Assembly: GCA_014058105.1 (NCBI GenBank)
Contig: JACGCM010001927.1
Location: 1,116,001-1,180,000 of the forward strand
Origin: Kingdonia uniflora
Lineage: Eukaryota > Streptophyta > Magnoliopsida > Ranunculales > Circaeasteraceae
Length of the DNA stretch: 64,000 nucleotides
Reading direction: 5' to 3'
Position 1 is the stretch's first letter, and every line of letters starts with the position of its first letter. The notes beneath the pieces were generated by a model. The model was not told the DNA's origin. It saw only the letters and a list, made by a program, of their open reading frames with translations, and did no database searches. Shown here piece after piece: positions 135 through 56,440 of the stretch. A program made the translations under genes and the position numbers.

Positions 135-867
135 TGTAGTAGCCTACTCGCAGCCTCCGACCCCACTCAGACACTCGAAGGCTACTTCGCAGCCTACCCA
201 AATATATCGAAGCCCATTCAATCCTCAAAACAAGCCTTCTAGAGATCCCCTGAAGACGAAGCTTCGACTCTGAATAAGCCTCGAGGATAGACTATACACA
301 TCGCTGCAGAAACCCTTCGACCATATCTGTACATGGTCGAAGTATGATGGGATAGGCAGCCAGCTCATCAGACAAGACGGTGCAGTGATTGGTTCTTGCA
401 ACTACAGTGACAAGCTCAACCACTGCCATAGTACCAACGTACAGAGACATCTCCAGCAGCTGTTACAGTGATAGTACAAACATGTCCGGTGCCCATACCC
501 CCGCCGGGATATCCAGACAATACCCTTATAATCTGACCTAACCTTGGTGACTCAGCCCATCCTATGTTCTATAAATAGGAGAGATGGGGATCCAAGGAAG
601 GGTTAGAAAAATCCTCCCCAACCCCTTTGCAGTTTACCTTCGACCACCCTATAAAACCCAGTACTCGAACCTTCGATTACTCATCAGTAATAAAAACATA
701 CTTAAAAATCATCATCAGAGGTCGTAAAGCGTCACATTCGGGCCTCTACGCAAGTATTTTTATATAGATTGTCAGTTCTTTAGATTATTTACTTGCATTC
801 CTTTTATTGAAGATCAACCTCGTGTTGTAAGAGCCAACTTCCCCTCCAAAGAAGTTATGCACCTACA
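135..867 (+). repeat. 5' LTR of element 1
   Basis: This runs from TGTAGTAGCC to ACCTACA and pairs with 12303-13035. A TATA box lies at 570-577. The end is followed after two bases by the primer-binding site. Confidence 0.93.
570..577 (+). promoter_or_regulatory. TATA box of element 1 LTR promoter
   Basis: TATAAATA within tctataaataggag, about 300 bases before the LTR end, is the expected core promoter for the genomic RNA. The 3' LTR has tattaata at this position, so that copy of the box is damaged. Confidence 0.7.
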
Positions 868-869
868 AT

Positions 870-6189: not shown

Positions 6190-6745
6190 TTGGTTTAACT
6201 TAGGTACCATGTCAACCCTTTGACCTGACTGATACTTAGGAGTGACCTTGAGGTTTTTCAAGCTCCCAATTTTGAGCAAACTCGAGGGGCAAGGATGGTC
6301 GAAAGACCGGACCCTCGAGAATGCATTGGAGGCGAACAGTTATGCATCGATCAGGCTCCAAAACCGTCAAAGTCCAGTCGATTCCGTGGTTTACCCTGAG
6401 TATAATGTCCACCCTCGCCCCGACTTATACTTGGGGGCGACCTTGGAATTTTCAAGCTCCCAATTTTGAGCAAACTCGAGGTGCAAGGATGGTCGAAAGA
6501 CCGGACCCTCGAGAATGCATTGGGGGCGAACAGTTATGATTCGATTAGGCTCTGAAGCTATCGTAGTCCAGTCGATTCCATGGTTTACCCTGGGTATCAT
6601 GTCCACCCTCGCCCCGACTGATACTTGGGGGCGACCTTGGAATTTCAAGTTTTCAGCATTCAAGCAAACTCGAGTGGAGCGAATGGTTGAAAGGCCAGAC
6701 CCTTGGGAATGTGTTGGGGGCGAGCACATTTTACATCGCTGTGGC
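6190..6745 (+). repeat. 194-base tandem repeat array of element 1
   Basis: Nearly three copies of a 194-base unit. The landmark gagcaaactcgag recurs at 6274, 6468 and, as aagcaaactcgag, at 6662. Each unit also contains ggtcgaaagaccggaccctcgag and a phrase like gtccagtcgattcc(g/a)tggtttaccctg. The array begins just after the pol stop and ends before the antisense gene, so it lies between converging genes. The small ORFs seen in it on either strand are by-products of the repetition. Confidence 0.9.
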
Positions 6746-7640
6746 TTCAGCCTTCGATGTTCAGCAGATCCTTCAATTTCATAAAAAAAGATATCACAAC
6801 ATCCTCGAAACTCTTCGGGGTCCGATCACTCTACAGACATTCGTCATAAGCAGTACATACAGATGCCATTGTACAAGTATATCTATAATACTACTAAGTG
6901 CCCAGAAGATTCAAAGTATCATACATCAGAGAGACAGTTGCATTACAACTCAAGTTTAGTAATCAAAAGTTCAAACACAAACCAAGACAATAGAATACGC
7001 ATCGATATTTCAATAATCCAGAATAAAGCAAGACTAGAACAAAACAACAAAGTCAGTCAAAAAATCAGGGATCAATTCAAAAGTTGGTCAGAATTAACTT
7101 CAGAAGTTCCACAAATAACCACCATCAGTACAGTACAACAGCTAAAAGACATACAAAGTTCAAAGACCAACGTAAAAAAAATAAACATGGTTCAAAAATA
7201 TTACAATTCAACAACAAATCAGAAGATGGAAGCATGGAACCCCAATACCAAATACCTCATATCGGCGCGGTTACACCTTCTTCCTCCACAAATCCCCCAG
7301 CGCCAACACCCTCAGCACCTTCAGTCGAAGGCCTCAACATCGCACCATCGACAGCCACATCGTCCACAGTTCCAACATCGATTGCTTCAATTACAGGAGC
7401 CTCCACACCACCCCCAGTACCTCCATCTGCTCCGTCAACAGCATCTGCCTCTCCTTCCTTCATCTACAAATCATCTACATCAAGAAGTTCGGGGGAAACA
7501 GGGAAAGGTTGCAGAGTATCAGGTTTATAACCCTTATCTTTTATAAACATTTTCAACCTGACAGTCACCTTACATTTATTATCAAACTACCGCCGGTAAG
7601 TCACCTTCTATTCTACCTTCTCCCTCTCTTTTGCCGTAAG
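6746..7640. other. Low-complexity 3' region of element 1
   Basis: No protein family is recognisable. On the plus strand it reads as Gln-rich, then Pro/Ser/Thr-rich (7250-7480). On the minus strand the same bases give an acidic Gly/Val/Glu-rich frame (7463-7257). The minus reading could be the acidic tail of the antisense gene c upstream, because it lies in line with that gene. This is inference only. Confidence 0.35.
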
Positions 7641-9412
7641 CTTTGCGGACCACTCTCACTCCTGCCTTGACCACTGAAAATCGAGCCTCTCATCAAACAA
7701 GTCAGTAATCACTGCCAGATCTCGCTTCCACTTCTTGACTTCAGATAACAATGGCGCCTCAGTCCCCCGAGAAAGATCCAGACTCTCCATTGCTTGTCAC
7801 AACTTCCCTTTTACTGACTTCACTGCCTTGCTGCACGATTGCACCCAAGCATCTGTCTGCTAGAATATTCAAACAGTCAGTACCCCTTAAAACTTGAAGA
7901 ACCTGCAAGAAATCTCAAACCCTCACAGAAGAAATTCATAGATAGTTACCTGAAACATACTCCTCTTTATTTCTTTCGATGCCTCGTCAGGGTCATCCTC
8001 ACAGAGCTCAACCATCAAGGCGTGCTTGGCCACCGCTTGCTCATGTTATTTAGCCTCCGTCAACTCTTCATCCTTATCTGTTACATCATCTTCCCCCAGT
8101 GCCCTACGCCGTTTGCTCTAACTAACCTTCGATTGCTGCACCTTCGGAGCTTCGGGAACCACCCGACCCTTCCCCTTCTCAATCTGTGTTGGTACCTACC
8201 TTGACCTCAATCTTGAAATATCGCCAGCCACTTCGGGTGCTGGCACTGCTTGCTTCGACCCCCCCTGCATTTTTGAAAAATACTAAAATTTCTTCTGGAC
8301 CCTTCGAATTACCTTCGCCTTTCCTTTGGCGTAACGAGTACGCTTCGAAGTAGGAAATCCGCCATCATCCTTCTCTGCCTCTTGATACCAAGACTGTCAA
8401 AAACAGAATTGACCCAATCCTCACTAGCTTCGAGCAAAGTATCAATATAGTTCCTCGGATTGTTCCAGGACAGATTATTCAGACCTGCAGAAAAAACAAA
8501 AATATAATTAACACCTATTCAAGACTTACATCAGCAGCAACCCTTCGACATCAAGCTTACTCTGATTATATACCCTATAATGCAACTTATAAAGGTCCCC
8601 CCCCCCTCAACATTCTCGTAGTTTCCTTGTACTGTCAATAAATCTTTATTCCACCCTCGACCCGTCGAACATAGATCAAAGAACCAGGGCTTTTATGTTT
8701 AATATTGGATGTGGTAGGTACCTGGGTTATGGCTCGCCTTCTTCGAGTAGAAGGTAATAATATCAAACCACTTAATCAAACCCCTCCCCTTATTGTTCAA
8801 CTTTACAATCATCCCCTCTATAACCCTCATCATCTCATAAAAATATCCATTTATTTGCACCGGAGCAACCTCCCAAAAATTCAGAACTTCTTTCTCTAGT
8901 CTGCGAAGAGGAAGTTCTATTCCTAATCGAATCTAACCTCTATAAGCCATTATCCCTTCCCCAGGGTCCGATTTGAAAGTTAACCCTACTCCCGCCATAT
9001 TCAAGAATACCCCAACTTTTGACAGGTCCAGCTTGGCAGCAAAACGATCTAATTTAACTCTATCTCTAGCCGAAACGGTACCTTCAAACCTATCCAACTC
9101 AGTCGAATCCTCACTTTTACCACTCTATCCCCGTTCTTCCTTTCTACCACCAGAAGGCCCCACATTACCCTCGCCCCTCTCCCCCTACACTATCTCCTTC
9201 TCTTTACTATCCTCAGTCACTACCGTCCTACGACATCTCGTAATCGGCAGCTCACAAGCGGGAAATACCATAGACAAAGGGGCTTAAGTTATAACATCTA
9301 ACACCTCTAAGTCATTGCCCTCATCCATTGGGGCACGACCAGAAACACTAGCTTTGAATGCTTCGATCTCTTCGTCTATCATCCTATGTCTCGAAGCTTG
9401 ATGGGTATGCAT
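7640..9412 (-). pseudogene. Antisense gene c of element 1 (Transposase_28-like domain), broken
   Basis: Reading the minus strand from an ATG at 9412 gives one frame to about 8730 with only four stops. After an acidic linker comes a domain with MAGVGLTFKSDPGEG, then RLGIELPLRRLEKEVLNFW, then VAPVQINGYFYEMMRVIEG. This pattern resembles the plant Pfam family called putative gypsy type transposon (Transposase_28, PF04195). After a frameshift, FFDLCSTGRGWNKDLLTVQG follows. The same string of blocks occurs in element 2 at 29291-28557 (SFPLTNLAKGIINAIGACPV and FFDLNSAGRTWNDNIIWVKG). Splice-like borders are visible: GTAAGT at 8529 to TTTTTTCTGCAG at 8485, and CAG/GTAACT to TTGCAG near 7950-7900. After the first, a short exon contains SWNNPRNYIDTLLEASEDW. 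A basic run SKRRRA lies further down. The function is unknown. A DNA-binding or gag-like role is a guess. Confidence 0.65.
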
Positions 9413-9847
9413 CTTACCTTACATAAGAAGAGGCATGCAATTAGATCGATATATTCGATAATTACATGTCAATAACTCATAGCCCATCTACCCACTTTAA
9501 CAGATTTACACACATTCGACACCTCGATCCTAAACCCAACACCTCCTTCAAAACCCCCAAAATCCCAGAATGGGTTGAAACCTAGACAAATAAATTCTCT
9601 TATCCTCGAAGATAATCCCCAAACCCCAAACGCAGACATTTTACTTTCAGACACACAAAAAAGTTCATCAAAACTAAGATTGGCAGAGTTCAAGTCACAT
9701 ACCTGTGTTAGAACCACTATACTCAGAACAACAAGATCAATAAAATAACTTCAACAACTTCTCTCAAAACACCAATGGCGTACGTTCTCTTCTCCTCACT
9801 CTCTAATTTTTTTCTCAGTAAACAGTACAGTAATTGCTCCTTTCACA

Positions 9848-9856
9848 CTTATATAC
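9848..9856 (-). promoter_or_regulatory. TATA box for antisense gene c of element 1
   Basis: GTATATAAG on the minus strand lies about 440 bases before the presumed coding start. It is followed by a purine-rich leader and an intron-like donor (CACAG/GTATGTG) near 9700. A short non-coding first exon would fit. Inference from position and sequence only. Confidence 0.45.
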
Positions 9857-10785
9857 TTTCTCTAAAAACCAAAACCACATCGATTTTCTCACCATTATCA
9901 TTACCCCGGCCCCACTACCCCGGCTTTTCGGCTACAATGTGTTTTAACTGACTTACCCCTCATATCCTTCACATGCGAGCAACACACTCACTTCAACTTA
10001 CCTGCAAAAACTAAAGCTTCTCAAACCCTTTCACCCTCACTCGAAGCTACACAGTCAAATCCAAGCGGTCAAGTCATAACTTTTTCCGTAATACGGGAAA
10101 AAATCATGATTACCCTTACGGTACACTGCCCCAGGTGTATGTACCATTCTGGCAGACCAGCCGTCTAGGCTATCAGTACGACCAGTCAAATCAAATAAGA
10201 CCTTTGATACATCCCTCGAATTCGAAGACTCGTCAACAGATAGCCTCAAATTTGGGTCCCTAATATATTGGCATTCGACCTACAACACATTCGTCGATTC
10301 AAAACCTTATGCCTCTATTATCTCGGCAGATCACCCTTTTTTCCTTCGGCAGATTACATTCACCCTTTGACAGATTACAATCATACATTTTGACAGTTCA
10401 AACATTTATGCTTACAGACCTAACCTTTTGCACCAACAGATCAATCTTTTCAGCTTCAACAGATAATACTCCCACTTCGACAGACTACAACCTTTTACTT
10501 CGGAAATCCAAGATTTTTCTATGACAATCCAAGCACTTTACTTCGACAGTTATATTGTTAATTCGACAGCTCACGATACTAGTTCAAGAATTCAGATTAT
10601 ACTATTACTTTCAGTTCGACAATTCAAATTACTACCAATGAAGTGCAAGAATACTACTATAATAGTACTTCCAAACACCAATTTCATTTAGAAAGATAAA
10701 ACATATTACAAGCCTCGTCAAAAGAAAAAGATCGAGTAAGAATAACAGAAGAAAGCCAACCAAAGCAACCAATAGATAGAGAACC

Positions 10786-11094
10786 TTAATTATCAGCGGG
10801 TTGCTCCTTTTTGACTATGGGAACAACACTAGCATCCCCCTCATCTACCATGTCTTTCACGAAGTCCTCAAGAAGAGACAACCGATGGCCGGGTAATGGC
10901 CCCATCATCTGCAATATTCCCCACCAGTACGCGAAGGGCATGCCACGAATTGGTTCCCTGGGTTCTGCCTCAAAAAGATTCGACATCTCAACATCAATGT
11001 CCTCTTCAATACTGAACCTCTGTCGTAGCTCCACAGCCTTCTCCCTTATTTGCCTGACCCTCACCGCTGCCTGGTTCTCTTGAGCAGGTTTCAT
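10786..11094 (-). CDS. Small antisense ORF b of element 1, intact
   Basis: An uninterrupted 102-residue ORF on the strand opposite to gag-pol. It is charged. It begins MKPAQENQAAVRVRQIREKA, has an amphipathic stretch IREKAVELRQRFSIEE, and then a block PFAYWWGILQMMGPLPGHRL followed by an acidic helix. The middle block resembles PYAYLWNRLKYNFATAEKRY of the neighbouring ORF a, suggesting the two arose by duplication. By shape and position it corresponds to 30541-30248 in element 2 and 47876-48229 in B. A TATA box (11186-11179) lies about 85 bases upstream, with a pyrimidine-rich leader. It matches no family I know. It is open while pol has about twenty stops, which may be chance at this length. 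Confidence 0.6.
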   Translation of the reverse strand: MKPAQENQAAVRVRQIREKAVELRQRFSIEEDIDVEMSNLFEAEPREPIRGMPFAYWWGILQMMGPLPGHRLSLLEDFVKDMVDEGDASVVPIVKKEQPADN

Positions 11095-11178
11095 TTACAA
11101 ACATCCTGATCCGAGCAAATAAGAAGTAAGATGAAGAAAGAATACAGAATGGTGAGAAATCCTCTCTACAACAGTCCC

Positions 11179-11186
11179 TTTTTATA
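11179..11186 (-). promoter_or_regulatory. TATA box for antisense ORF b of element 1
   Basis: GGGTATAAAAAGGG reads on the minus strand. The box is about 85 bases before the ATG at 11094, a normal distance for a plant promoter with a short leader. A CpG-poor T/C-rich leader follows. Confidence 0.5.
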
Positions 11187-11759
11187 CCCAAAATCCAATT
11201 TCAACTTTCCCTCTTACCTAGCCGTATTAATTGTGATCTGCAATTCCCTACCTCGAAAACTCAACAACCCAACCACTTCAACTTCCCAGACGTAACAGTT
11301 TTCGCCGCATACGCATGAACACACCATTTACGAGGATTTTCATCAAGCCTTTTTCATTAAAACTTTTTCATCGAACCTTTTTCATCGATCCTTTTTCATT
11401 GAACCATCGACATTTTCAATGCCTACCAGTTAATTACATTCGACCAGATCATTATACTTTGAGAACACATTTCGCAGCATTAACTAGCATTACCCGTTAG
11501 CATTCAATGAGAGAAGTTTGGCTATCATGACTACGAGCCTATTCATTTCCAATGCCTAGCAGTTACAAAAACTCAAAATGTAGTAAAATATTATTTTCAT
11601 TCTGTTCTACCACATACAACAACAGAACGGTAAAATTTCAAACCTAAATCCATTGCTACAGCCAACCCAAACAAAAACCTCTATAATACAAAGATACAAA
11701 TCATCAACACCTCAAACAACAGCCCTACTTCCAGAAGGCCCAACTCCACTCACCGCGCT

Positions 11760-12050
11760 TTATTCCTCAATCTCCTCCTCCGTACAAATGAGGCATTCGG
11801 CCAAAGCTAACAGAAAGAGGTAACGCTTCTCCGCAGTAGCAAAATTGTATTTCAGTCGGTTCCAAAGATAGGCATAAGGCTCCCCATTGATGAGCTCTCC
11901 AGACTCTACCTCCACCAATTCGGGCATGTCCCAGTCCAGATCATGATGCCCAAAAATATTTATATGCAGTTCACCCGTCTTCCGCCCTACGCAACGGTCC
12001 CGGGCGAGCCCCATCTTCTTTTGATATCGCGTGTTGGGCGTGGTATCCAT
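11760..12050 (-). CDS. Small antisense ORF a of element 1, intact
   Basis: The open frame extends back to 12149, but I prefer the ATG at 12050 (96 residues). The bases before it are CT-rich and leader-like, and the resulting length equals that of the sister ORFs. It begins MDTTPNTRYQKKMGLARDRC, continues with HINIFGHHDLDWDMP, then PYAYLWNRLKYNFATAEKRY, and ends in an acidic tail CTEEEIEE. The blocks FGxxxL and Y-x-x-W followed by a basic residue pair and Leu-rich helix also occur in element 2 (31766-31464: KYFGDRSLE, FYYKWRFHVFALTDKERW) and B (46635-46955). It is the first antisense gene inside the 3' LTR. Function unknown. A small helical, possibly protein-binding product is all that can be said. 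Confidence 0.6.
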   Translation of the reverse strand: MDTTPNTRYQKKMGLARDRCVGRKTGELHINIFGHHDLDWDMPELVEVESGELINGEPYAYLWNRLKYNFATAEKRYLFLLALAECLICTEEEIEE

Positions 12051-12287
12051 AGAAATTTCAAAATTTGTAGAGGAAAGAGAGAAGAATGAAAAGGAAGAAG
12101 ATTCTTCTGTATCCCTATTCAGTAACCCATACTTATTGCCTAATTTCATTTATTACCCAATAACCACCTATACCTCTTAATTACCCTCTTTTATTACTTA
12201 CCCGAAAACCAACAGTCAAACCGCTCAAATTCCAAGGCAAAATAGTTTTCTTAGCGAACGCCTCTCCACCAGGCTTCGAGATACTCC

Positions 12288-12302: not shown

Positions 12303-13035
12303 TATAGTAGCCTACTCGCAGCCTTCGACCCCACTCAAACGCTCAAAGGCTACTTCGCAGCCTACCTGAATATATCGAAGCCCATTCAATCCACAAAAAA
12401 AGCCTTCCAGAGATCCCCTGAAGACGAAGCTTCAACTCTGAACAAGCCTCGAGGATGGACTACAGACATCGCAGCAGAAACCCTTCGACCAAATATGCAC
12501 ATGGTCAAAGTATGATGGGACAGGAAGCCAGCTCATCAGACAAGACGGCGTAATGATTGGTCCTTGCAACTACAGTTACTGGCCCAACCACTGCCATAGT
12601 ACCAACGTACACATACATCTCTAGCAACTGTTACAATGACAGTACTGACATGTCCGGTGCCCATACCCCCGCCAGAATAACCGAATAAAACCCTTGTAAT
12701 CTGACCTAACCTTGGTCACTCAGCCCATCCTATGTTCTATTAATAGGAGAGATGGGGAATCAAAGAAGGGCTAGAAAAATCCTCCCCAGCCCCTTTGCAG
12801 TTTACCTTCGACCACCCTGTAAAACCCAGTACTCAAACCTTTGATTACTCATCAGTTATAAAAACATACTTAAAAATCCCCATCACAGGTTGTAGAGCGT
12901 CACATTCGGGCCTCTACGCAAGTATTTGTCTATAGATTGTCCATTCTTTAGATTATTTACTTGCATTCGTTTGATTGAAGATCAACCTCGTGTTGTAAGA
13001 GCCAACTTCCCCTTCAAATAAGTTAGGCCCCTACA
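12303..13035 (+). repeat. 3' LTR of element 1
   Basis: Pairs with 135-867. The first bases are TATAGTAG rather than TGTAGTAG, a G-to-A change in the terminal dinucleotide. The end is CTACA, followed by the agctt duplication. Confidence 0.93.
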
Positions 13036-13040
13036 AGCTT
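13036..13040. repeat. Target-site duplication of element 1 (right)
   Basis: agctt, identical to 130-134. Confidence 0.93.
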
Positions 13041-16849: not shown

Positions 16850-18527
16850 GTTAGGAATTTAACGATAATATTGCTTCAATCTCCTAGTGTTCCAAAGGCT
16901 TGGTATTCTGATGTCGTCCTTTATCATGAGGTAGTAGGATCCAAGACCTATTCGTCCCACACCCAAAAATGGACCTTCCCAATTCTCTGCAAGCTTCCCA
17001 ACATTTAAACTTTTTTCCGCTCTTGGGGATCTCTCAGAGAACTAAGTCATTGACTTCGAGCTCGTGACTTTGAACTCTTCTCTTGTATGAACTAGCTAGC
17101 ATATGATGATATCAACCTAAATTGGCAACAACTCGAGCTCATGTTTCGTCGATCTAGTTCATGCTGCAGGCTAATTCAAACTTATTTTCTTCATCAGTGA
17201 GCTCGTGACCTATGACGGGGTAATGATAGGTTGTCGGGATTGCAACTTCTGTGTCATATGCAACTAAGAATGGAAAATATTTTGTTAACTGTCTTAGTGT
17301 CATGCAGTAAGCCCATAAGACATGTGGTAGTTCCTAATCCAATTACCCTTCGTCTTTAATTTGAGTCTCCTCTTAATTCTATCCACTATAGTCTTGATTA
17401 TGATCTCGACCTGCTCATTGCCTTGGGGGTAATATGGGCTGGAGGGTAAATAAATAATGGTGTGCTGGTTTAGAAATGCCACAACCTTCTCTCCAATGAA
17501 CTATGGGTTGTTATCGATCCGAATTAGGTGGGGGCAACCAAATTATGTGATGATATGTTTCCAAATAAATGAGATGACTTCTTCCTCTCAGGTCTGATAG
17601 AGGGGAACTGTTTCAACCCACTTAATAAAGTAATCTATTGCGATGAGTTAAAACCTTCTATTACCCAGTGTGTTAGGGAATTCCTCCACGAGATCAAGTA
17701 CCCATCGCTTGAAAGGCCAGAACACCTTACTTGCGTGAAGCTCGAGAGCAGGGGCTCATATTTGATTACCACGTTGCAGGCACGCATTGTATTTTAGTAA
17801 ATACACCTAAGCCTATTTTCATATTTTATGCCATAATACTCCTTGCTTAATTACTCTATTTGCGAGTGATCGACCTGCGGTATGGGAGCCACAAGTCCCA
17901 TCATGTAGATCCTTGAGCATTCAATCAGCTTCTATCTTTGAGAGGCACTTGAGGTATGGTCCAGTGACCGACCTTCTATATAATTTGATTTTATGAACTA
18001 TGTAATGCTTTAAGTTTTTAATCAACTGTCGGCACTCTTTTAGATTTTCTGAAAGGGGCCCATCACATTTGTTTCTTGGGCTGAGATATGTGAGGAAAGG
18101 CTTACTCCTCGTCATTGTCCCCAGTGTTGATCGCACATACCATTAGGAGATCAATGTTGGGGGTTAAAATTACTTCAATTTCGGGATACCTTGCTTTAAT
18201 TCCTAAGACCCCGGTTAAGTAAGCCAAGGAATCGGCGTATCAATTTTTGCTATGAAGTAAAAAATTAAGAGAAGCTTTATTGAATTTTCTCATCTTGTCA
18301 GCAACTAGGGCTACATAATCAACCATCTTCCCATTCTTCATGTATCGCTCAGAGTAGTGATGGACGATGAGGAAGGAATTGGTATAGACCGATAGTTCAG
18401 GAACTCCAATCTCCAATGCCATATCTAGGCCAAGAATTAATGTTTCGTTCTCTGTGACATTGTTGGAGGCTACAAAATTAAGGTGTATTAATTTCTTAAT
18501 TCTGTCGTTGGAGGGTGTAATCAGTAT
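16850..18527 (-). pseudogene. pol: Integrase and archaeal RNase H of element A (left piece)
   Basis: Minus-strand pol. It contains the integrase core (PSSPYYPQGNEQVEIIIKTI at 17460-17390, with the third catalytic acidic residue E present) and the segment LGPRNKCDGPL found at the integrase N-terminus of B. Then comes the archaeal RNase H: VTENETLILGLDMALEIGVP and YSERYMKNGKMVDYVALV. The bases after the end of antisense gene c (16840: tcctgtg, ctcctagtgttcc) match 56900-56960 of B, but B's tandem repeats are missing here. Element 2 entered in the aRNH codons that read ILITPS, and the gene resumes at 32643. Frameshifts and stops throughout. Confidence 0.85.
18523..18527. repeat. Target-site duplication of element 2 (left)
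   Basis: agtat, identical to 32643-32647. Confidence 0.93.
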
Positions 18528-19104
18528 TGTAGGGACTTATCCCTCGGCCTCACTCATAATCGAGCTCACACAGTTCAATTTACTTCAATCCAGGCTCACG
18601 AAATTTTAGCACTTAACACTCCAGTCAAACATTCCAACCACCCCCACGAACTACTCAACAATGTGGAACGAGCTAAACCAGGAAAACGCTATTTAGTCAA
18701 AGACACCTGTCTCACACGAACTCGTCAGTTATCCAATCAGCCGTCATTAACCACATTATTCAGAAGATGTGCTCCAGCACGACGAAGAGCTGTGGGAGAA
18801 GTCTATATAAAGGAAAAGTTCTAGAAGAGATAGGGACCAAGAAAAATTACTCACTTCTTATTTACGAGATCAAAAGCATTTCAATATTCTAGAGATCACT
18901 TGAAATAAAGATATCCACTCCAAGCAATAAAGATACTATTACAAAAATCCTCCATACGAGGTCTTTGTTTTTTACCTGTTTAGAGGTTTTCCATGCTAAA
19001 AACACCTGCCTCCAATTCTTGCTTAATATTAGCGTATTGTTACAGGATCATTGGTGTGATAGCTAATTCATAATCGAATCGAGCTACGGTATTTAGCCAT
19101 TACA
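18528..19104 (+). repeat. 5' LTR of element 2
   Basis: From TGTAGGGACTTAT to TTTAGCCATTACA. A TATA box (TATATAAA, 18804-18811) is followed by the R/U5 part. Pairs with 32063-32642. Confidence 0.94.
18804..18811 (+). promoter_or_regulatory. TATA box of element 2 LTR
   Basis: gtctatataaaggaaaag. The same box stands in the 3' LTR at about 32339 (cctatataaagg) and drives genomic RNA in such elements. Confidence 0.65.
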
Positions 19105-25632: not shown

Positions 25633-28600
25633 TCATACTACAAAAGATTCTTTTCCGCTAGTGTTAGCAATATTTTCCCCCACATCATCAAGAGATCTAT
25701 CTTTCAGTTTACGGGCCACAGCAGCTCTGCCTTGATATATTGATTCAGCAGTTCGAGGGCCCAGTTGGGTCTCCATGGCACCTAGACAGTTCCCTTGATC
25801 TACCTTAGCTCCACAGATACATCTCTTATCCGACAGAGTTTTGAGCAAGGTACCTCGTTCTGACTCAAATCTTTTAACTTCCTCTACAAAATATGCAATG
25901 ATCACCCTTAACAGGTCATTTCGAGACACACCAGGTACTATCACTACGGCAAATCTTGCCTTCAACCTCTCGAGACGTACCTTTAACCTAACACAATTGT
26001 CCTTCCATTCAATTATTTTCGCATCGAACTTATCATGATAAATGGAATCGTCTTTCAATTTGGCAATATACTGTGCCGACTCAGCTAGGTTTATGGCTTC
26101 TAAATCTACTACTCGGGCACAAAGTCTAACAATTTTTGCGTTCAACTCTTCCTTAGCCGGCAGATTTTTCAACAATTCCTCCTTCCTCTTCACTAGCAAG
26201 TTATTTGCTTTGATCTCCCCCACCAAAACTTTTATCCTAATAAGAGCAGTATCCAGCTTATGCTGGCATTCCCTTAAATTCATATTTCCTTTCTGAACAT
26301 ACCCTAAATTTGAGATACGTCACTTTCTAGCTCTCTAATGCGACTTGAGAGACTAACTACATCCCCTCGAACTAAAGGAGCCTTAACCTCAGTTTTACTT
26401 CCCCCAAAGCACTCTCTAGCCTCGGCTTTCTTGGCACGAGCAATGGCTTGATCCTTTTCGGCTTTAAGTCGAGCAACTCTCTCGCTTAAGTTATCACACA
26501 TACGCTGCATTTCTCAGAATTTCATATCCTTGGCATGGAGTGCTATTTGCAAATGTTCAGCTACGGCCTTCGAAGCCGATAGATTTTCTCGAGCTGGCCT
26601 CAGCTCGTCATCCTTTTCGATAAATTTTTGACTCATTCACTCCAGGTCGTTCCTACATCTTTAAAGATCATATCGACATTGTTTCTTAGACAGTTCCAGC
26701 GCTTGAATACGGTATTGAGCCGTGTCGGCCTGTTTACCCTTCATAGCCAACGCGTCGACCTGACGTTGGAGTTTATCGACACGTGTTATGGCCTCAGATA
26801 GATTTTATAATCCCTTCTTAATTTCATATTCTTTCTCCTCAACCTAGATAGTCAGGTAGGAAACGACCTGATTCAACTTCGTAAGTCTGAAATGCACTTT
26901 TACGTATTGATCCTCTCTGTTCTCGTTCACCTCCTTCATCCTTTCGAACTGCTCTGCAAATTCCCGATTGCACATGAGTACGTTGTCCTCAAGTGCACAA
27001 GATGAATCCAATTCGACCTAGGAAATATAACAAATTTTAGTACAGTTCGATTCGGGAAATTTAATGCCTAATATACACATACAGCATTCTACGGACTACG
27101 TGGTTTCAAACATCTGTTTCCAAGTACTTTTAGACTAAAAGCTTGGAGTCCATTCTCAGATGAACATTTCATGAATCTTCTTTCAGCGTACAAGGTACAC
27201 ACTTTCAATATCTTATTATGTATTCATAGCATTAGATTTTTGCTATGCATTTCTATCATATTTACGTGGTAACTTAACGTTGGTGTAACATGAAAGTTGA
27301 ATAACCTAAACAGATCTAACCTGCAGCTCAGCTTGCACAGGCAGCAAGGCTTTAGAGGTTTATCTTTCCCTAGCAATTCCATACTCTAACTCATTTATCT
27401 TGAGACTCATCTCTCTAACTACCTATAAAAGATTTATAAACAGAGCCAACATACAAAAGTTTCTTCCTCACTCAGAAGTTATACAACTTACAGATATTTA
27501 TACAATGCAACTACCCTACCTTTTCACTCCCACATTCTAGAAGCTCGACATCATCCCCTTGGTTGTCAAGAACTATATGGCGGGAGACACCATCCAGACC
27601 ATCCACGACTCTCACCACTTTCGCTTCCTCATCTTCCACCTTAATATAGGTGTCAGCCTTAATGGCATCCACCTCCTCCTGAGAATAGCCCTTCAGCATC
27701 AAGTGACAACCCAGTCTGTCACACTTCCTAGCAATCTCATCTAGGTTAGCCTTGGCCTCGACCTGTAGCTGGCCGATCGCCACGGTGTGAGTAGCCTTCA
27801 GCTGCCTGACTTCCTTCATGGCTTCAGTCTTAGCTAGAGCTAGGTCTTTCTCCAGCTCGCTCTTCACCTTCTTCAACTCGGATTTTTCATCTTCAATACC
27901 GAGCCAAATCCGCTTGATAAGACGAGCAACCTGCAAAAATTATATCGATCTCAGTTATTAGTTCGAAGTATGTTAAATATTTCCTTCTGATAACATAACA
28001 CTTACCATCCTGTTTGTGTCTTCCTCCCCATGGGAGCCGTCAACCTGGCCCTTTCCTCAACCTCCCTAAGCTCATCCACCGCAGAAGGTCGTACCTCAGC
28101 GACCTTCTCCCCAGAGGATTCGACCCATCCTCCTTTTCTCTTTAGCGACCTTACCACTTTCCGTGGCATCTGGGGCCAGCATAGTCTTTAGCATCCGTTT
28201 CTTCAGAAAGAGTTGAGCTACCTTGATCAACTTAACAGGTTTCGGCTAAGCCGAAATGCCAGTTCCAGGGGTCTTGGAAGGATTCGGTCGAGCATCCTCA
28301 CCACTTGTTTACCTTTTTCCTTCATCAACCCCCACCATCAACCTAGCAGACTGAGCCTTTCGAACCTTTTTTGACCTACTATCAACTCTCTTCATTATAC
28401 TCAGGCCGAGTTCCCTCAAGAGGAGTTTGAGTTTAGTCTCCTCCTCCACAACTTTGTCCAACAGGGATTCTTTCCATTCCACTGTGGATTTCACGCATGC
28501 AATAACACGCTTTACTATCAGCTACAGTTGTCAACAAAATATAACAATAATTCTATCTACACATGTCCATACTTACTTTGCTTTACAGATCTAAATTGAA

Positions 28601-29391
28601 GGTCCAAAGGTTCTTCAACATCTCTTTGAAGGCAATTACCCTTTACCCATATGATGTTGTCATTCCAGGTTCGACCTGCTGAATTCAGATCGAAAAAATG
28701 ATGCCGAGTTACACTCGCACAGATATACAACCCCCCACTGGCCTTAAAATTCTTCACCTCATAAAACTACAGAACGTCGACAAGGGTTATCCTCCGCACA
28801 TTTTCTTACCTTTCATTCAGATGGTCACATACACTTATTACCTCCCTCATGTTCTCGTTCATTTGAACAGGACATGCCCCAATTGCATTAATAATCCCCT
28901 TCGCCAAATTGGTGAGGGGAAAACTCAACCCATACTCTAATTGAAAGAGGTCACTCTGGACATCACCATCGAAATACTCTAACAAGATCGATTCATCTAT
29001 AGCCCTATCTTGTTTTTCTACGTCCAAATCTGCCAAAAGGTAAAAATACTCTTTCCCCTCCACTACCGTACAACCCCTAAATTGCCTACCGACAAACTCT
29101 ACACATTTACCCCACTTCCCTCCTACAGCCTCCTTGACTTTACAAAATTCTCTAAAGGCATCAGAACCCAGAGGATACGACACCAACTGACCAGGGAAAC
29201 CTGGGAATTGTTCCAGTCCTCCTTCCTCTTCATTATCAGACTCATTCGTCTGACCAGAGGTCAAAACCTCATTAACAGATAAACTACTCATCTAAAAAAC
29301 AAATTCTACAGGCTCGTTTTCGACCTACAAAGATGCCTCTCACACTCAACCTTCATACAGGTTAAGGTATGTATCATTTTCCCATCTATGT

Positions 29392-29448
<57 letters not shown>

Positions 29449-29923
29449 CAATCATTCACGTATAACACATATCTTTAAACTATAAAAAATCAAAAATAAT
29501 TGCATGCACCTCTACTAACCTTCCGTATCCGAATAAGAATCGGCAGTAGAATCAAGCTTTTCTCTTACAATGCTGTTGTGCTGCCACCTACGAGATCCCG
29601 AATCTTTTGCCCTCTTCAATCGTTTATCGCCTTCAGATAACTCTTTATCGACTCCCCTGATTTTTCATCTTTCTCTCTGAGATAAAACGTTTGTTTGGAG
29701 ACGAAGATAAACTATTTATCCTTTCTCTCTCATGCAGCTGGCATTTTTTGCTCTTCGCACGAACTGTCCTCGATTCCAGAACCGAGGCATCCTTTCCACT
29801 CTCCATGTCAGATGCCTTATACCTTTTTGATAAAACCACATTTCCATCATTACAATCCCCCTTATTTTTTAACATATTTTTTTCTCTTATTTCTATATCT
29901 TCCTCTGACCTTCCTATACTCAT
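25633..29923 (-). pseudogene. Antisense gene c of element 2: Transposase_28-like plus coiled coil
   Basis: The gene is read in exons from 29923 down to 25633. Exon 1 (29923-29645) begins MSIGRSEEDIEIREKN and has a counterpart in B at 48496. An exon at 29291-28806 (161 residues, uninterrupted) carries SYPLGSDAFREFCKVK and LFQLEYGLSFPLTNLAKG, resembling the Transposase_28 family. A likely intron (AAAG/GTAAGA to TTCTGTAG) leads to FYEVKNFKASGG and FFDLNSAGRTWNDNIIWVKG (28757-28557). Coiled-coil exons follow (28494-28309, 27936-27511, 26510-26304). The last exon (26283-25633, 216 residues open) has IAYFVEEVKRFESERGTLL, a C-x-C-x8-C group (CICGAKVDQGNC) and AMETQLGP. The (TA)n run at 29389-29444 lies in the first intron. 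Few stops and long open exons suggest it decayed less than pol. Function unknown. Confidence 0.68.
29389..29444. repeat. (TA)n microsatellite
   Basis: About 28 TA units in an intron of antisense gene c. Such runs are common in plant introns, and nothing suggests a special role. Confidence 0.95.
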
Positions 29924-30247: not shown

Positions 30248-30541
30248 TTATTCGTCGATCCACATATCTTCAAATTTGATCTCTACTCTAGGGATCAAAC
30301 CCACCAACCTTTCTAATTCTACCGAATCACTCATGAATACACGAAAGAATACTTCATAAAAATAATGAACATACTCAAGATCTCTGTTCCTTATGTCTAA
30401 TCCTTCGACCTGACATTCCCTCACTGGCAACTCAGCATTGTAACCAAGCAAACCGAAGATCCTTTCCTGCACTTCAGCAGTTTTTATAGCCAATCGTCCT
30501 TCTGTGGCATGATGAATCCTCTAAGATCGAGTCTGTACCAT
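30248..30541 (-). pseudogene. Small antisense ORF b of element 2 (one stop)
   Basis: The start ATG at 30541 is chosen because B has the same opening: MVQTRS here and MVRTRSER there, followed by HHATEGRLAIKTAEVQERIF here and HHAAEGRLAIRISEVRERIF in B. The frame then runs to 30248 (97 residues) with one stop at the seventh codon, a G-to-T or similar change of GAG. The middle reads GLLGYNAELPV and the end YFYEVFFRVFMSDSVELERL. The protein is predicted all-helical and fairly acidic. A TATA-like run (30571-30565) lies only about 25 bases upstream, close for a promoter. Homologous in position, and weakly in sequence, to element 1 ORF b. Confidence 0.6.
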
Positions 30542-31463: not shown

Positions 31464-31766
31464 TCAGCATATCAGCCCCGCAGATACACCTTTCCCTACA
31501 TATAAACCCCTAACCCTATCTTCCGTAAGGGTGCGGAGACAGGCCCAGCGTTCCTTGTCTGTCAAGGCGAAGACATGAAATCTCCACTTATAGTAGAAAT
31601 CTTCCTCAGCTTCAACCGCTTCCACTCCCGACAAGCCTTGGTATGTCAGAGGAATAGGGGCTGGGATTACCATTTCCAAGGAACGATCACCAAAGTACTT
31701 CAACTTCAACCTCTACATTTCAGATGCAATCCTCTCTTCAAAAACCATACTCCAAGTTTTCACCAT
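31464..31766 (-). pseudogene. Small antisense ORF a of element 2 (one stop)
   Basis: From ATG 31766 the frame reads MVKTWSMVFEERIASEM, one stop, then RLKLKYFGDRSLEMVIP, TYQGLSGVEAVEAEEDF and YYKWRFHVFALTDKERWACL, ending at 31464 (100 residues). B has the same start (MVKTR) and order at 46635-46955. Element 1 ORF a shares the FG and Y-x-x-W blocks. A TATA box (TATATAA, near 31829-31820) is about 55 bases upstream, so the gene probably has its own promoter just inside the 3' LTR. No known family. Confidence 0.62.
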
Positions 31767-32051: not shown

Positions 32052-32062
32052 AAGGGGGTGAT
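32052..32062 (+). other. Polypurine tract of element 2
   Basis: aagggggtgat directly precedes TGTAGGGA of the 3' LTR. B has the counterpart gagggggcgat on the minus strand (46309-46299). Confidence 0.85.
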
Positions 32063-32642
32063 TGTAGGGACTTATCCCTCGACCTCACTCATAATTGATC
32101 CCACACAGTTTGATTTACTTCTATCTCAGTTTCATGCAATTTTATTACTTAACACTCCAGTCAAACATTCCAACCACTCCCACGAACTACTCAAGAACGT
32201 GAGTCAAGCTAAATACAGAAAATATTATTTAGTCAAAGGCACCTGTCTCCCACGAACTCGTCAGTTATCCAGTCAACTGCCATTAACCACGTTATTAGGA
32301 AGACGTGCTCCAGCACGACGAAGAGCTGTGGGAGAAGCCTATATAAAGGAAAAGTTCCAGAAGATATAGGGACGAAGAAAAATTACTCAAACTTCTTATT
32401 TACGAGATCAAAAGCATTTCTATATTATAGAAATCGCTTGTAATAAAGATATCCACTCCAAGTAATAAAGATACTATTACAAAAATCCTCCATACGAGGT
32501 TATGGTTTTTTACCTGTTCATAGGTTTTCCACTCTAAAAACATATGTCTTCAATTCTTGCTTTATATTAGCATATTGTTATAGGATTATTGGTGTGATAG
32601 CTAATTTCTAATCGAATCGGGCTACGGAATTTAGCCATTACA
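32063..32642 (+). repeat. 3' LTR of element 2
   Basis: Pairs with 18528-19104 and is followed directly by agtat. Confidence 0.94.
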
Positions 32643-46634: not shown

Positions 46635-46955
46635 ATGGTGAAAACCCGGTGAATGGTTCTTGAAGAGAGAGTGTCTGCTAAAATACAAAGGTTAAAGTTG
46701 CAATATTTTGGGGAATAATCGTTGGAGATGCCCACCCCAATTTTTGTACCACCGACGTATTAGGGTATGTCGTAAGACGAAGCGGCTGAAGTTGAGGATG
46801 ACTTTTACCACATGTAAAGATTTCATTACATTGTCCTGGCAGGTGACTAACGTCGGAGGTGTCTTCGCATCCTTGTAGAGGACAAGGTTGAGGAGATAGA
46901 TGTGTGGGCCGACGTATATGGAAGGCATTACTGTCAGTATCCTGCAAGGGACTAG
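46635..46955 (+). pseudogene. Small antisense ORF a of element B, broken
   Basis: The frame from ATG 46635 to a stop at 46953-46955 has 106 codons with about six internal stops, most of them TAA or TGA in place of CAA or CGA. It aligns from start to end with element 2 ORF a: MVKTR against MVKTW, VLEERVSAKIQRLKLQYFG against VFEERIASEM, AEVEDDFYHM against AVEAEEDFYYKW, and RCLRILVEDKVEE against ACLRTLTEDRVRG. The lack of frameshifts over 320 bases supports it as a real gene that decayed by point changes. Confidence 0.62.
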
Positions 46956-47875: not shown

Positions 47876-48229
47876 ATGGTGAGGACTCGTTCGGAGAGAG
47901 TTCATCATGCTGCTGAGGGACGATTGGCAATTAGGATTTCAGAAGTGCGGGAAAGAATTTTTTATTTATTAGGTTATGATTCTGGCTTGCCTGAATCTTA
48001 AATCCAACTCGAAGGCTTAGATGCGAGGGTGAGGGAACTTAAGATCAGACGTCACTTTTACTCGGAGATATTCTGTGAAGTAATTCTAAAGCCTGCAGTT
48101 CAAAAAGAGGTCGTAAGGAAAATTACTGAGGAAGAGATCGAGGAGGAAGATATGAGGATTATTGGGGGCGAACTGAATAGGTGTAGTTCTCCAGGACATT
48201 TAGTATATTTTATGAGTAATTATATGTGA
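47876..48229 (+). pseudogene. Small antisense ORF b of element B (one stop)
   Basis: Begins MVRTRSERVHHAAEGRLAI and continues ISEVRERIFYLLGYDSGLPE, followed by one stop at about 47998. It stays in frame as LEGLDARVRELKIRRHFYSE and EEIEEEDMRIIGGELN to 48229. It matches element 2 ORF b (30541-30248) almost residue by residue at the N-terminus and more loosely at the end. It differs from element 1 ORF b except for the general pattern (RVRQIREK-like helix, then an aromatic block). Confidence 0.65.
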
Positions 48230-48396: not shown

Positions 48397-48495
48397 GTAG
48401 AAGTCGGAATAAAAAAGGAGAGTAGCTTTGATTTTTATCTCTTGTGCTCTTGCAGGGAAAGTTTGATTGCATGTGAGTATTAAGTCATCATAAGT

Positions 48496-49287
48496 GTGGG
48501 GAGGTCAGAGAGGAATTTGTGTAGGAGATATGAGAATATATTAAAATATAGAGTTAGAGGTAATGATGGGAAAATATTTTCACCAAAAATGTGCAAAATG
48601 TCTGACATTAATTGTGGAAGGGACGCCTCAGTTCCAAAACTGAGGGTAGCTCGTGCGATCCCAATAACTGCCAACAGTTATAGAGAAAAAAATAGTTCAT
48701 CTTCCACATTTGAGCGTTTATCACCTTCTGAAAAATGGGAGAACAGTGGGAAAAAAGAGAAAAAAAAATTGCTGAGATTTACATAAGAGATTAGACGAGA
48801 GTGATCATCCCACAAGGAGAGAAAAAGTTACAGAGACAGAGTCATGACAGTGGTTGCATAGCAGCATTGCGAAGGAAGGATTTGGCACTGCTTGAGAATC
48901 GTATTCGGACGTTGAAGGTTAGTAACAAATTTATGATTATATGAATGTAAGTTTTAAAGATTTTATAGTTTTTTTTCCAAATTTTGAAAGATTACTATTT
49001 ATAGTAATTTATAAAAATTTGTTTAATTTATGTGTAAAAAGATATATGTATATGATAGAGGTATATGCATGATGGATGTATGGTAGGTATGTGTATGTAT
49101 GTGTATAAATAAAAGATAATTATAAGTTGACAGAATACCTGAACCTTTATGTATGTTGGGCATGAGGAATGTTTGTTATAGATTCAAACCTCATCTTTAA
49201 GCCTATAATTGAGATAGAGACTTCACCTAATATGGAGACATCGACCTCTGGTCGTACGATTGAGTCTGAGACTGCAGAATCTATAAA
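48496..49287 (+). pseudogene. Antisense gene c of element B, 5' part
   Basis: Exon 1 (48496-48786) reads MGRSERNLCRRYENILKYRV and SDINCGRDASVPKLRVARA, matching element 2's MSIGRSEEDIEIREKN and SDMESGKDASVLESRTVRA. After an intron, TSTSGRTIESETAES (49240) matches VLTSGQTNESDNEEE at the start of element 2's Transposase_28-like exon. The match then breaks off at 49287, where element C begins. The rest of that domain is missing and the gene resumes in its coiled-coil part at 54337. Confidence 0.6.
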
Positions 49288-50905: not shown

Positions 50906-50999
50906 ATAGTAAAAATGTAATTAAAAGTAAAGATAGTTGTATGGAATCGTCGAAAGCGGTGACAGTTGTCATCTGTAAAACATTATCAGTTTTGGGCTA

Positions 51000-54336: not shown

Positions 54337-56440
54337 GTTGCTTGTAACAATCTCGGTCTAAAACTTTAAGAGATCGGTTACTCTGGGGAGGATGTCCAAG
54401 CTATAATGGAAGGACAATTTGTGGAGGCAGAGGAGCCCGACCAAGAGGATGACCCTGAGGCTGGTAGTACTCCTCCCCGTGATACTGTTAATTATTTGGA
54501 TGAGGTCTCTACTAGGGTAGAGTTTAAGAATCGGGGAGAAGACGATAAGGTAGAGTAAAACTGTAGTAAAGTTATTTGTGGAATGAAACTATTTGTTGTA
54601 TGGAATATATTTAAGTACATTAAGGATCGGTCTATGATATAGTGATGTATAAATATTGATTTGTAGAAGCTTAAAGATTAGCGCCTCATAATTGAGGATT
54701 TAGAAAAAGAGCTCGCTAAGGAGAATTTTTTTACAAATGCAGTAGCTCTCATGGCCCCTCGTAAAGAGTTTCAGGTAAGAAAATATAAAGGAAATAACAA
54801 AAAGCACTGAATTGATATAATTGTAGCTCGTTTAGGATCGATCTAAGATAAAAGATAGGATTAAGTCCAAAAATGTGACCTGTTATTTGAAATATTAGAA
54901 AATCGTTGTATTAATCCAATCCTGAGATTGCAAAGTGTATGGTCACCAGGACAAGAAGTCATCAGAGCTTGAAAGCTAAGTATGAACTCGTACTGGCAGA
55001 TATATGATATATAATATATCTGTGATAGATGTAGTAATGTATGCAAACTGTTGTATATTGAACTATTTATATGAGAAATATAAAAATATTCTCAATGTTT
55101 TAAACTTGAAACGAACTGTGGTGCAGGCCGAGCTGGACGCCACACGATCTCGTGAGGAAGATGTGTTAAGATGTAATTATGATTTTAAACTTAAATTAGA
55201 TAGGATCGAACAGGTACTTGAAGAGAGCGCAGATCAGTATGTAAAAGTAGACTTAGGACGACTATGTCAAAAAAGATAGTTAGCGAGCTGAGCCAAAAGA
55301 TCGAGAATAAGGAAGCGAAGTTAAAGAAAGTTCAAGGTGAGTATGTATAGTGGAGTTGAGATGTTAAAGAGCACGTTAGAGTGTGTAAAGGGGAAGTGCA
55401 AAGAGACGGATACCTCACAATATCGTATTAGATCGTTAAAGGCAAAAGTGTTGCAATTAACAGGGTATCTAAATAATTTGAGGGGGGAATTGAGGATGAA
55501 GGAGGACGAACTAGTGAAAGCGTGGGCAGATTTATCAATTGCAGAAAGTGATGTGGAGAAGCTGAATGAGACCGTAAAGGTAAAAGAGGTTAGTCTTCGG
55601 AGTGCTCAGAATCAATGTGATAAGCTTAATGAACGGGTGGAGAAGCTGAGGGCTGACCTGTCAAGTACTCGCGGCAGTAAGGTGGAGGTTTTGGAGAGAT
55701 CAAAGAAGAAACAGAAGGATATCGAAGCTGTTAATGTTAATGATGAATTTGCTTGTACCCAGGCCCAAATCAAAGAATTAGAGGCAGATTTGATTTATGT
55801 TCGAGCTACCGAAAGGAAAGCTAATGAGCGAGCTAGAGAGAATAGGGATAAGTTGGACATTTCTCGAATCAAAGAAAAAAAGTTGGATGAATCTCTCAAG
55901 AAAAAGGATGAAATATTGAAGAATTCTTTTTTCATGGGAAGTAAAGTCAATGAGGCTTTATAGAAAAAGGAGGAGTTTCTAGTATTGCGAAGGAATGTAG
56001 AGGAGCTAAACGATGATAAAGGGAAAAGTAAGGTTAAAAAGGGTAGGTTTTTGGAACTGACAAAGTCATTGACCAGTGTTGTATCAGATCTTGCAGGACA
56101 CTTGGAGCGAGCCAAGATTTTCTATACAAAGTTAAATAAAATATTTATGAGTATACGTAGTAGTTTTATTGACCTGGTCGTACATAATCAAAGCAGACTA
56201 TCTACGAATAAAGTTCATTCATAGGAGATGACAGTAGTAATTGCATATTTTGTGGAGGAAGTGAAGAGGCTTGAGCTCGAAAGGGACACGTTGCATGATT
56301 GTCTAGTTTTCAAAGGCTGTATGTACTGTCAGACTAAAGAGGATCGAGGTAACTGCCTGAATTCTATGGAAACCAAAATTGGCCCCATTATAGTAGAGCC
56401 AGTAGAGCGAAGAATGGAGTTTATTGTTGCTCGAGCATAA
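54337..56440 (+). pseudogene. Antisense gene c of element B, coiled-coil and C-terminal part
   Basis: Resumes with a block like GYSGEDVQAIMEGQF (54375), which is GYSQEEVDAIKA in element 2 and GYEFEDVEAIMER in A. An intron (about 54777 GTAAGA to 55126 GTGCAG) is followed by AELDATRSREEDVLRCNYDF. A 208-codon open stretch (55337-55963) is almost pure coiled coil (LRGELRMKEDELVKAWADL, LKKKDEILKNSFFMG). The end (56228-56440) has VIAYFVEEVKRLELERDTL, CMYCQTKEDRGNC and SMETKIGP, the C-terminal motif shared with element 2. Only a few stops separate the long open pieces. Confidence 0.68.

What the first reader, a model, noticed from the sequence alone, without database searches (positions are those of the whole stretch)
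7640..12050. A conserved set of three antisense genes (c, b, a) between pol and the 3' LTR in three Tat-type elements
Element 1 (9412-7640, 11094-10786, 12050-11760), element 2 (29923-25633, 30541-30248, 31766-31464) and B (48496-56440, 47876-48229, 46635-46955) each carry a large gene and two small ORFs in the same order, all opposite to gag-pol. A/2/B are one family and element 1 is another, so the set is older than the split. Between element 2 and B the small ORFs align from start codon to stop without frameshift. Antisense ORFs in Tat elements are known as a class. I do not know of a described function for this three-gene set.
Basis: partly seen in the sequence, partly recalled or inferred. 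Interest (0 to 1): 0.85.

Follow-up and report, generated by a model that had tools for sequence, protein, structure and literature searches.

The report
Antisense gene trio in plant retrotransposons
Two families of jumping genes in one plant genome carry, on the strand opposite to their replication genes, three extra genes with promoter-like starts of their own, kept by selection, two of them small duplicated copies of one another; such extra genes are known in this class of elements, but the small duplicated pair appears to be undescribed.

Summary
Elements 1, 2 and B each carry c, b and a in the same order, antisense to gag-pol. The window copies are decayed. Across genomic copies the frames are under purifying selection: median pairwise dN/dS is 0.27 (a), 0.23 (b) and 0.28 (c) in family 1, falling to 0.14-0.19 between distant copies and 0.58-0.81 between near ones. 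Between elements 2 and B it is 0.25 (a) and 0.13 (b).
New here: (1) a and b are paralogues (profile E 1e-10). (2) The genes have TATA boxes of their own at near-fixed places. (3) c is intron-containing, with a leader intron, and its core is TRP28-like. So these look like three separate transcription units, not exons or chance ORFs.
That the whole set predates the family split is supported only for a. Trees mildly favour separate a/b duplications, or concerted evolution, in each family.
Antisense TRP28 genes between pol and the 3' LTR are a documented hallmark of Retand elements, so c is a known kind. For the small pair I found no relative outside Kingdonia uniflora and no known fold. Function is inferred: nuclear accessory proteins acting with c.

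The parts
137..868 (+). 5' LTR of element 1 (90.3% identical to 12305-13036)
12305..13036 (+). 3' LTR of element 1
11715..12050 (-). gene a of element 1 (112 codons in relatives; window copy has TAA at 11762-11760)
12131..12137 (-). TATA position of gene a, about 87 nt before ATG (mutated in the window copy; TATAWR in 19 of 21 family-1 copies, 18 of them at -86 to -91)
10786..11104 (-). gene b of element 1 (family ATG at 11104-11102 is one base out of frame here; frame open 11094-10789, stop 10788-10786)
11180..11186 (-). TATA box of gene b (GTATAAAAAGG in the window; TATAWA in 17 of 19 aligned copies)
7640..9412 (-). gene c of element 1: TRP28-like region, basic region, coiled coil (the last two by eye from translations); decayed and intron-containing.
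9850..9855 (-). TATA box of gene c (TATAWA in 19 of 19 aligned copies)
9415..9702 (-). leader intron of gene c: donor CAG|GTATGT at 9702 (GT in 95% of 19 copies), pyrimidine tract and AG just before the ATG (same place in 16 of 20 rows; one base shifted in the window copy)
8485..8560 (-). probable intron inside gene c (donor GT 0.95 of 19, acceptor TTTTCTGCAG|G 0.89 of 18)
31464..31766 (-). gene a of element 2 (one in-frame stop); TATA about 62 nt before ATG
30248..30541 (-). gene b of element 2 (one in-frame stop); TATA about 54 nt before ATG
25633..29923 (-). gene c of element 2; TRP28-like part 28943-28572 (33% identical to c of family 1, E 2e-15), coiled coil 26319-25636
46635..46955 (+). 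gene a of element B (6 in-frame stops over the 85 codons aligned, 46635-46889); TATA 76 nt before ATG
47876..48229 (+). gene b of element B (aligned 47876-48160; 1 in-frame stop); TATA 47 nt before ATG
48484..48919 (+). first part of gene c of element B, with CTATAAATAG upstream
55004..56437 (+). coiled-coil end of gene c of element B (open frames; parts 55130-55249 and 55814-56404 matched by E2's c), separated from the first part by sequence similar to pol of other elements

Best explanation
The region is an accessory gene module of TRP28-type (Retand-like) Ty3/gypsy elements: three independent protein-coding transcription units, read antisense to the genomic RNA, each from its own TATA promoter between pol and the 3' LTR. 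c encodes a spliced, TRP28-like, coiled-coil protein. a and b encode about 100-residue helical paralogues born by gene duplication. All three are kept by selection while elements transpose and drift after insertion (shown, from sequence). Inferred: because the genomic RNA is made from the other strand, the introns and promoters of these genes survive reverse transcription, so the antisense orientation lets the element carry ordinary nuclear genes that stay expressible apart from the LTR promoter. Inferred function: nuclear accessory factors, with a and b as the two unlike subunits of a small regulatory or adaptor complex working with c on the element's chromatin (transcription control, anti-silencing, or preintegration-complex targeting). 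Probability of the three-separate-genes part about 0.9; of a nuclear regulatory role about 0.4; of a/b as partner subunits about 0.3.
For: Purifying selection on all three frames, repeated with single natural copies as queries: family-1 pairs with dN/dS<1 are 351 of 353 (a), 374 of 376 (b), 189 of 190 (c); the median falls from 0.58-0.81 at dS<0.2 to 0.14-0.19 at dS>0.7, the signature of selection before and drift after insertion. Seven copies chosen by DNA of the mostly non-coding a-b spacer, not filtered for stops, give 0.43 and 0.42 among themselves (21 of 21 pairs <1 each) and 0.14 and 0.19 against a distant clade. E2 versus B: 0.25 (a), 0.13 (b). Of 20 copies chosen on b alone, 20 carry a upstream (some in pieces) and 19 carry c. 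Starts: ATG in 25 of 27 (a1), 21 of 22 (b1), 14 of 15 (a2), 11 of 12 (b2) copies that cover the codon. TATA boxes at near-fixed places: a1 19 of 21, b1 19 of 21, c1 19 of 20, a2 15 of 15, b2 13 of 15, against shuffle expectations of 10.2, 2.0, 6.3, 5.1, 5.6. Conserved leader intron and inner intron of c. Paralogy a1-b1: E 1.1e-10, 0 of 60 controls as high. A joint a+b alignment gives a model of a with pLDDT 81.7, pTM 0.71.
Against: No transcript, protein or localisation data. The TATA evidence for a1, a2 and b2 is modest by count alone (10.2 of 21, 5.1 of 15, 5.6 of 15 expected in shuffles); it rests on the fixed distance, and related copies are not independent. For three b1 copies (L020, L025, L027) I moved the assumed start 24 nt upstream before measuring. 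The TATA boxes of c in family 2 were seen by eye in two elements only. b1 alone folded poorly (pLDDT 45.6). In family 2 most pairs are young, so median dN/dS is only 0.56 (a2) and 0.70 (b2). c matches PF04195 only below the curated cut-off (E 0.017 and 0.07 in two of four c pieces, not in the other two). Of the 28 family-1 copies 20 were chosen for having no stop in b. The functional role is by analogy only.
Confidence: 0.7

Rival explanations
1. a, b and c are exons of a single spliced antisense gene, like HTLV HBZ, and only look like separate ORFs.
For: Same strand and order; introns exist in c. One gene model in the public set, GIB67_000332, joins remains of a and b.
Against: b ends at a stop right after the same codon in 17 of 21 copies and a at the same stop in 16 of 20 rows; conserved ATGs and TATA boxes of their own; the stretch between a and b is among the least conserved (0.56-0.76) and lacks codon periodicity (19 of 21 copies).
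Confidence: 0.06
2. The antisense strand is transcribed for RNA reasons (small-RNA decoy or self-limiting double-stranded RNA), and the ORFs are incidental.
For: Antisense transcripts of other elements can act as RNA; raised for this class in PMC7264820 (section read).
Against: Codon-level constraint in three separate frames, with 0.49-0.51 of differences at third positions in family 1.
Confidence: 0.06
3. a and b are one ancient duplicate pair that predates both families, with b changed beyond recognition in family 2.
For: Same order in both families; a1-a2 homology; in two of three alignments this tree is not rejected at 0.05 (AU p 0.06 and 0.23).
Against: a1's best partner is b1, and a2-b2 scores above all 60 controls while b1-b2 does not; ((a1,b1),(a2,b2)) is best of the three topologies in 3 of 3 alignments; a2 and b2 share the start MVxT.
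Confidence: 0.35
4. a and b are captured host genes or passenger sequence.
For: Some elements in plants carry captured genes (PMC7264820).
Against: No host homologue found in 5.8 billion proteins (word-limited sensitivity); presence of a in 20 of 20 copies chosen on b, constraint in two families.
Confidence: 0.04

Closest known systems
Retand lineage antisense TRP28 ORFs (PMC11963269)
   Same: Antisense ORFs between pol and 3' LTR; TRP28-like core in c, with a coiled coil (the paper lists SMC-like domains in some clusters); tandem repeat arrays (194-bp and 161-bp units in elements 1 and 2).
   Different: That survey counted ORFs of 600 nt or more, and shorter ones only if they held TRP28. In the parts read it does not treat about 100-codon genes, paralogous pairs or a promoter for each ORF; a find for Ranunculales and Kingdonia gave no occurrence.
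Grande gene23 (Gomez-Orte et al. 2013; known here only through the review PMC7264820 and reference lists)
   Same: Antisense accessory gene in the 3' region, own promoter.
   Different: One gene is described; its protein was located in the nucleus. No sequence comparison with gene23 was made here.
Retand of Silene latifolia ORF3/ORF4 (through PMC7264820 and passages of PMC11728184)
   Same: Antisense ORFs, TRP28 in ORF4.
   Different: No statement seen that its ORFs are paralogous small proteins; its sequence was not compared here.
HBZ of HTLV-1 and other retroviral antisense genes (HBZ details recalled; antisense genes of HTLV are discussed in PMC11963269)
   Same: Antisense accessory gene of a retroelement; splicing.
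   Different: No homology implied; recalled as one spliced gene from the 3' LTR, whereas here three genes with internal TATA boxes are inferred.

Membership tests
Retand-type antisense accessory gene (TRP28 aORF), for c | ORF antisense to gag-pol, between pol and 3' LTR | tested here: met
Retand-type antisense accessory gene (TRP28 aORF), for c | TRP28 domain, PF04195 | tested here: inconclusive
   Best E 0.017, 15.8 bits against cut-off 26.2, positions 7-41 of 69; 2 of 4 c pieces matched at E<=1
Retand-type antisense accessory gene (TRP28 aORF), for c | Element falls in the Retand clade by RT phylogeny | not tested
   No named reference RT sequences were aligned
Retand-type antisense accessory gene (TRP28 aORF), for a and b | TRP28 domain | tested here: not met
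   No Pfam family at E<=1 for one natural a and one natural b; window pieces of a and b gave none at E<=0.1 except DUF6381 for b (E 0.048, 13.9 bits against 26.6); a and b profiles do not match the c profile
Grande gene23-like accessory gene | Transcribed from its own promoter | tested here: inconclusive
   Conserved TATA boxes only; no transcripts
Grande gene23-like accessory gene | Nuclear protein | not testable with these tools
   Basic N-terminal halves in one a1 (pI 9.7) and one a2 (pI 9.3); the b1 tested is acidic in both halves
Envelope-like sense ORF (Athila type) | Sense orientation after pol | tested here: not met
   All three genes are antisense

The most novel reading that the evidence does not exclude
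Two families of one retrotransposon lineage have each duplicated a small antisense gene into a standing pair of unlike paralogues, each with its own promoter, working as a two-subunit accessory complex beside the TRP28 protein: a convergent, previously undescribed protein family and a fully three-promoter antisense regulatory module in a plant retroelement.
Probability: 0.3. Interest if true: 0.7.

Novelty: new variant of a known kind. Interest (0 to 1): 0.52.

Why it matters
Antisense genes are a hallmark of a large group of plant retrotransposons, yet their function is unknown. The existing survey (PMC11963269) passed over small ORFs without TRP28. Here small antisense genes show codon-level constraint as strong as the long TRP28-like gene, come as paralogous pairs, and sit behind separate TATA boxes. 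That gives testable units (two 11-13 kDa proteins and a spliced coiled-coil protein), and suggests that other Retand-type elements should be re-read for small antisense genes. The conserved splice signals indicate that the antisense strand is expressed, and offer a reason why the orientation is kept: introns on that strand survive reverse transcription of the sense RNA.

Tried and rejected
One spliced gene: I looked at the ends of a and of b for splice donors and found conserved stops instead. The strong acceptor upstream of c pairs best with a donor 288 nt above it (9702, the best-scoring conserved donor of the scan).

Apparent acceptor at 12289 reads as the antisense of the polypurine tract beside the 3' LTR, so it was discarded.

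Conserved GGGTAAGT-like donor near 12201 upstream of a: no partner acceptor picked out; left open.

Homologues outside the host: b1 1 hit among 13 candidates, a1 1 among 395, family 2 none among 136; both hits are Kingdonia uniflora proteins. The search needs shared 5-residue words, and plant gene sets tend to drop element ORFs (recalled), so absence elsewhere is not shown.

Papers: five answered searches listed no title or abstract start on small paralogous antisense ORFs in Tat or Retand elements; of the listed papers I opened three (PMC11963269, PMC7264820, PMC11728184), each in part. One search (Kingdonia genome and retrotransposon) listed 5 papers, none on this. The library holds open-access papers only; Steinbauerova et al. 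2011 on extra ORFs in Ty3/gypsy elements is recalled, not read.

PF04195 count in the whole genome: not completed.
Full report
Setting. The window is 64 kb of a 1.0-Gb plant genome (G000). The public protein that matches b lies on a contig of 3,189,232 bases, the same length as contig C966 of G000, and is named Kingdonia uniflora; so the host is very probably K. uniflora (Ranunculales). Element 1 has LTRs at 137-868 and 12305-13036 (90.3% identical), element 2 at 18526-19104 and 32061-32642 (88%). gag and RT domains are on the + strand in element 1, protease-like (below cut-off) and RT domains on + in element 2, RNase H on - in B.

Observation. On the opposite strand, between pol and the 3' LTR, each element shows c, b and a. 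With natural copies as queries: a of family 1 at 12050-11715, b at 11088-10789, c at 9418-8708; family 2 a at 31766-31467 and 46635-46889, b at 30541-30251 and 47876-48160. The a and b copies in the window are all decayed, and so is c of element 1; the relatives tell the story.

Copies. b of element 1 as protein query gave 7518 first-look candidates, of which 150 were scored and listed, nearly all matching from about residue 3 to 102 without length change. I took 20 that had no stop in b (6.4 kb each), so this set is biased for b. I added 7 copies, the loci given for the best non-self hits of the DNA search with the mostly non-coding a-b spacer (7 of 40 non-self rows; the query holds the last part of a), not filtered for stops, and 13 family-2 copies chosen by DNA (13 of 40 non-self rows, fetched). 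Of the 20 chosen on b, all 20 have a upstream (some in pieces) and 19 have c.

Selection. With single natural copies as queries, median pairwise dN/dS (Nei-Gojobori) is 0.27 for a1 (353 pairs used of 378; 24 saturated, 1 too short), 0.23 for b1 (376 of 378; 2 saturated), 0.28 for c1 (190 pairs, 20 of 28 copies matched; the 7 added copies are too short to reach c), 0.56 for a2 (105 pairs) and 0.70 for b2 (67 used of 91; 11 saturated, 13 too short). In every gene the ratio falls with distance: 0.58, 0.37, 0.25, 0.14 for a1 over rising dS bins, 0.81, 0.42, 0.29, 0.19 for b1, 0.60, 0.40, 0.30, 0.14 for c1, 0.75, 0.52, 0.33, 0.27 for a2, 0.79, 0.43, 0.41, 0.35 for b2. Nearest pairs range from 0.13 to 1.66, several near 1, as expected for copies that drift after insertion. 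The seven unfiltered copies give 0.43 and 0.42, and 0.14 and 0.19 against the distant clade L021/L024/L029; E2 against B gives 0.25 (78 codons) and 0.13 (92 codons, dS 2.9, near saturation). Codon bootstrap of a deep comparison (300 replicates): b1 0.17 (0.10-0.26), c1 0.11 (0.08-0.16); for a1 (0.13) the bootstrap failed through saturation. Many copies are broken: stop-free over matched codons 11 of 28 (a1), 21 of 28 (b1, biased), 4 of 20 (c1), 5 of 15 (a2), 2 of 14 (b2).

Genes, not exons. b ends directly at a stop after the same codon in 17 of 21 copies; a ends at the same stop in 16 of 20 rows, one codon later in 1, out of frame in 3, and 4 of the 16, the window among them, have an earlier stop too. 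Upstream of the genes is a TATA box at a near-fixed distance: a1 19 of 21 (18 of them at -86 to -91), b1 19 of 21 (mostly GTATAAAAGG at -81 to -86; -58 to -64 in the three copies with another N-terminus, after moving their start 24 nt up), c1 19 of 20 (GTATATAAGTG-like, -422 to -452), a2 15 of 15 (14 at -59 to -62, B at -76), b2 13 of 15 (-43 to -57). Shuffles of the same stretches would give 10.2, 2.0, 6.3, 5.1 and 5.6, so for a1, a2 and b2 it is the fixed place more than the count that speaks. In the family-1 alignment of 19 copies, TATA[AT]A is kept in one column in 19 of 19 (9855) and 17 of 19 (11186); of 21 AT-only patterns of like make-up, 17 had no non-coding column at 17 of 19 or more, and the other three beside TATA[AT]A hit shifted readings of 9855 (two) or one column at 12155. 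c of E2 and of B also have CTATAA-type boxes about 110 nt upstream (by eye). c of family 1 has a leader intron: donor CAG|GTATGT at 9702 (GT in 95% of 19) and a pyrimidine-rich acceptor just before the ATG (AG in 16 of 20 rows; shifted by one base in the window copy and L014, absent in L021 and L029), and at least one inner intron (about 8560-8486). Splice signals kept on the antisense strand imply that this strand is expressed and spliced while the genomic RNA is made from the other (inference).

Relationships. a1 and b1 align over 87 columns with E 1.1e-10 (score 60.8; best of 60 column-shuffled controls 24.1). a1-a2: E 5.5e-6 (36.2 against 22.5). a2-b2: E 0.0012 (23.6 against 18.5), and a1-b2: E 0.0065 (20.3 against 18.5), both weak but above all 60. 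b1-b2 and b1-a2 are within controls (5 and 19 of 60 as high). Of three constrained topologies ((a1,b1),(a2,b2)) is best in three alignments, with the rivals not rejected at 0.05 in two of them. So either each family duplicated the gene by itself, or the two copies evolve in concert; a single old duplication is not excluded. c of family 1 and of E2 share the TRP28-like core (33% identity, E 2e-15); c pieces match PF04195 below cut-off.

Proteins. The joint a/b alignment (18 rows) gives a confident helical model for a (pLDDT 81.7, pTM 0.71: helices 7-33, 59-69, 73-102 and a short one at 47-50) without a match of note. Of four natural proteins tested, pI is 5.9 (a1), 4.1 (b1), 7.8 (a2), 6.3 (b2), size 11.5-12.9 kDa; the first half of a is basic, pI 9.7 and 9.3 in the two families, whereas b1 is acidic in both halves.

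What is known. PMC11963269 (abstract, results on species and structure part 1, discussion, passages) reports antisense TRP28 ORFs in 97% of recently active Retand clusters, suggests DNA binding and a regulatory role, and surveyed ORFs of 600 nt or more. PMC7264820 (abstract and four sections) reviews antisense ORFs, Grande gene23 (nuclear, own promoter) and the possible RNA or protein roles. PMC11728184 was seen in passages only. So c and the architecture are of a known kind; the small paralogous pair and the three-promoter arrangement are, as far as the named searches go, not described.

Mechanism. Shown from sequence: three coding units, constraint, promoter-like and splice signals, paralogy. 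Inferred: nuclear accessory role with a and b as partner subunits. The interest is moderate: a clear extension of a known class that makes its open question (what do the antisense genes do) testable with small proteins, but without functional evidence.

Noticed in passing
window 6227-6723 and 24854-25438: Tandem repeat arrays (194-bp unit x 2.6, 161-bp unit x 3.6) on the gag-pol side of c in elements 1 and 2; [quoted passage not shown]
   Followed up: partly
L020, L025, L027 (b region): A sub-family of element 1 has a different b start: an earlier ATG and a serine-rich N-terminus in place of the usual leader, with the TATA box kept.
   Followed up: partly
P0001 (GIB67_000332) and P0002 (GIB67_000393): Public Kingdonia hypothetical proteins that match these element genes; P0001 joins what look like remains of a and b.
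   Followed up: partly
window 38648-39394 and 41855-42561: A 75.6% identical direct repeat pair about 3.2 kb apart, perhaps the LTRs of another old element.
   Followed up: no
window 10360-9860 and 12310-12150: Non-coding stretches about as conserved as the coding ones (0.68-0.83) without codon periodicity; the first is upstream of the c TATA box, the second between 3' LTR and a, with a conserved GGTAAGT-like site near 12201.
   Followed up: partly
L017:5319-6399: Sequence like a LINE reverse transcriptase next to the c gene of this copy (by eye from the translation).
   Followed up: no
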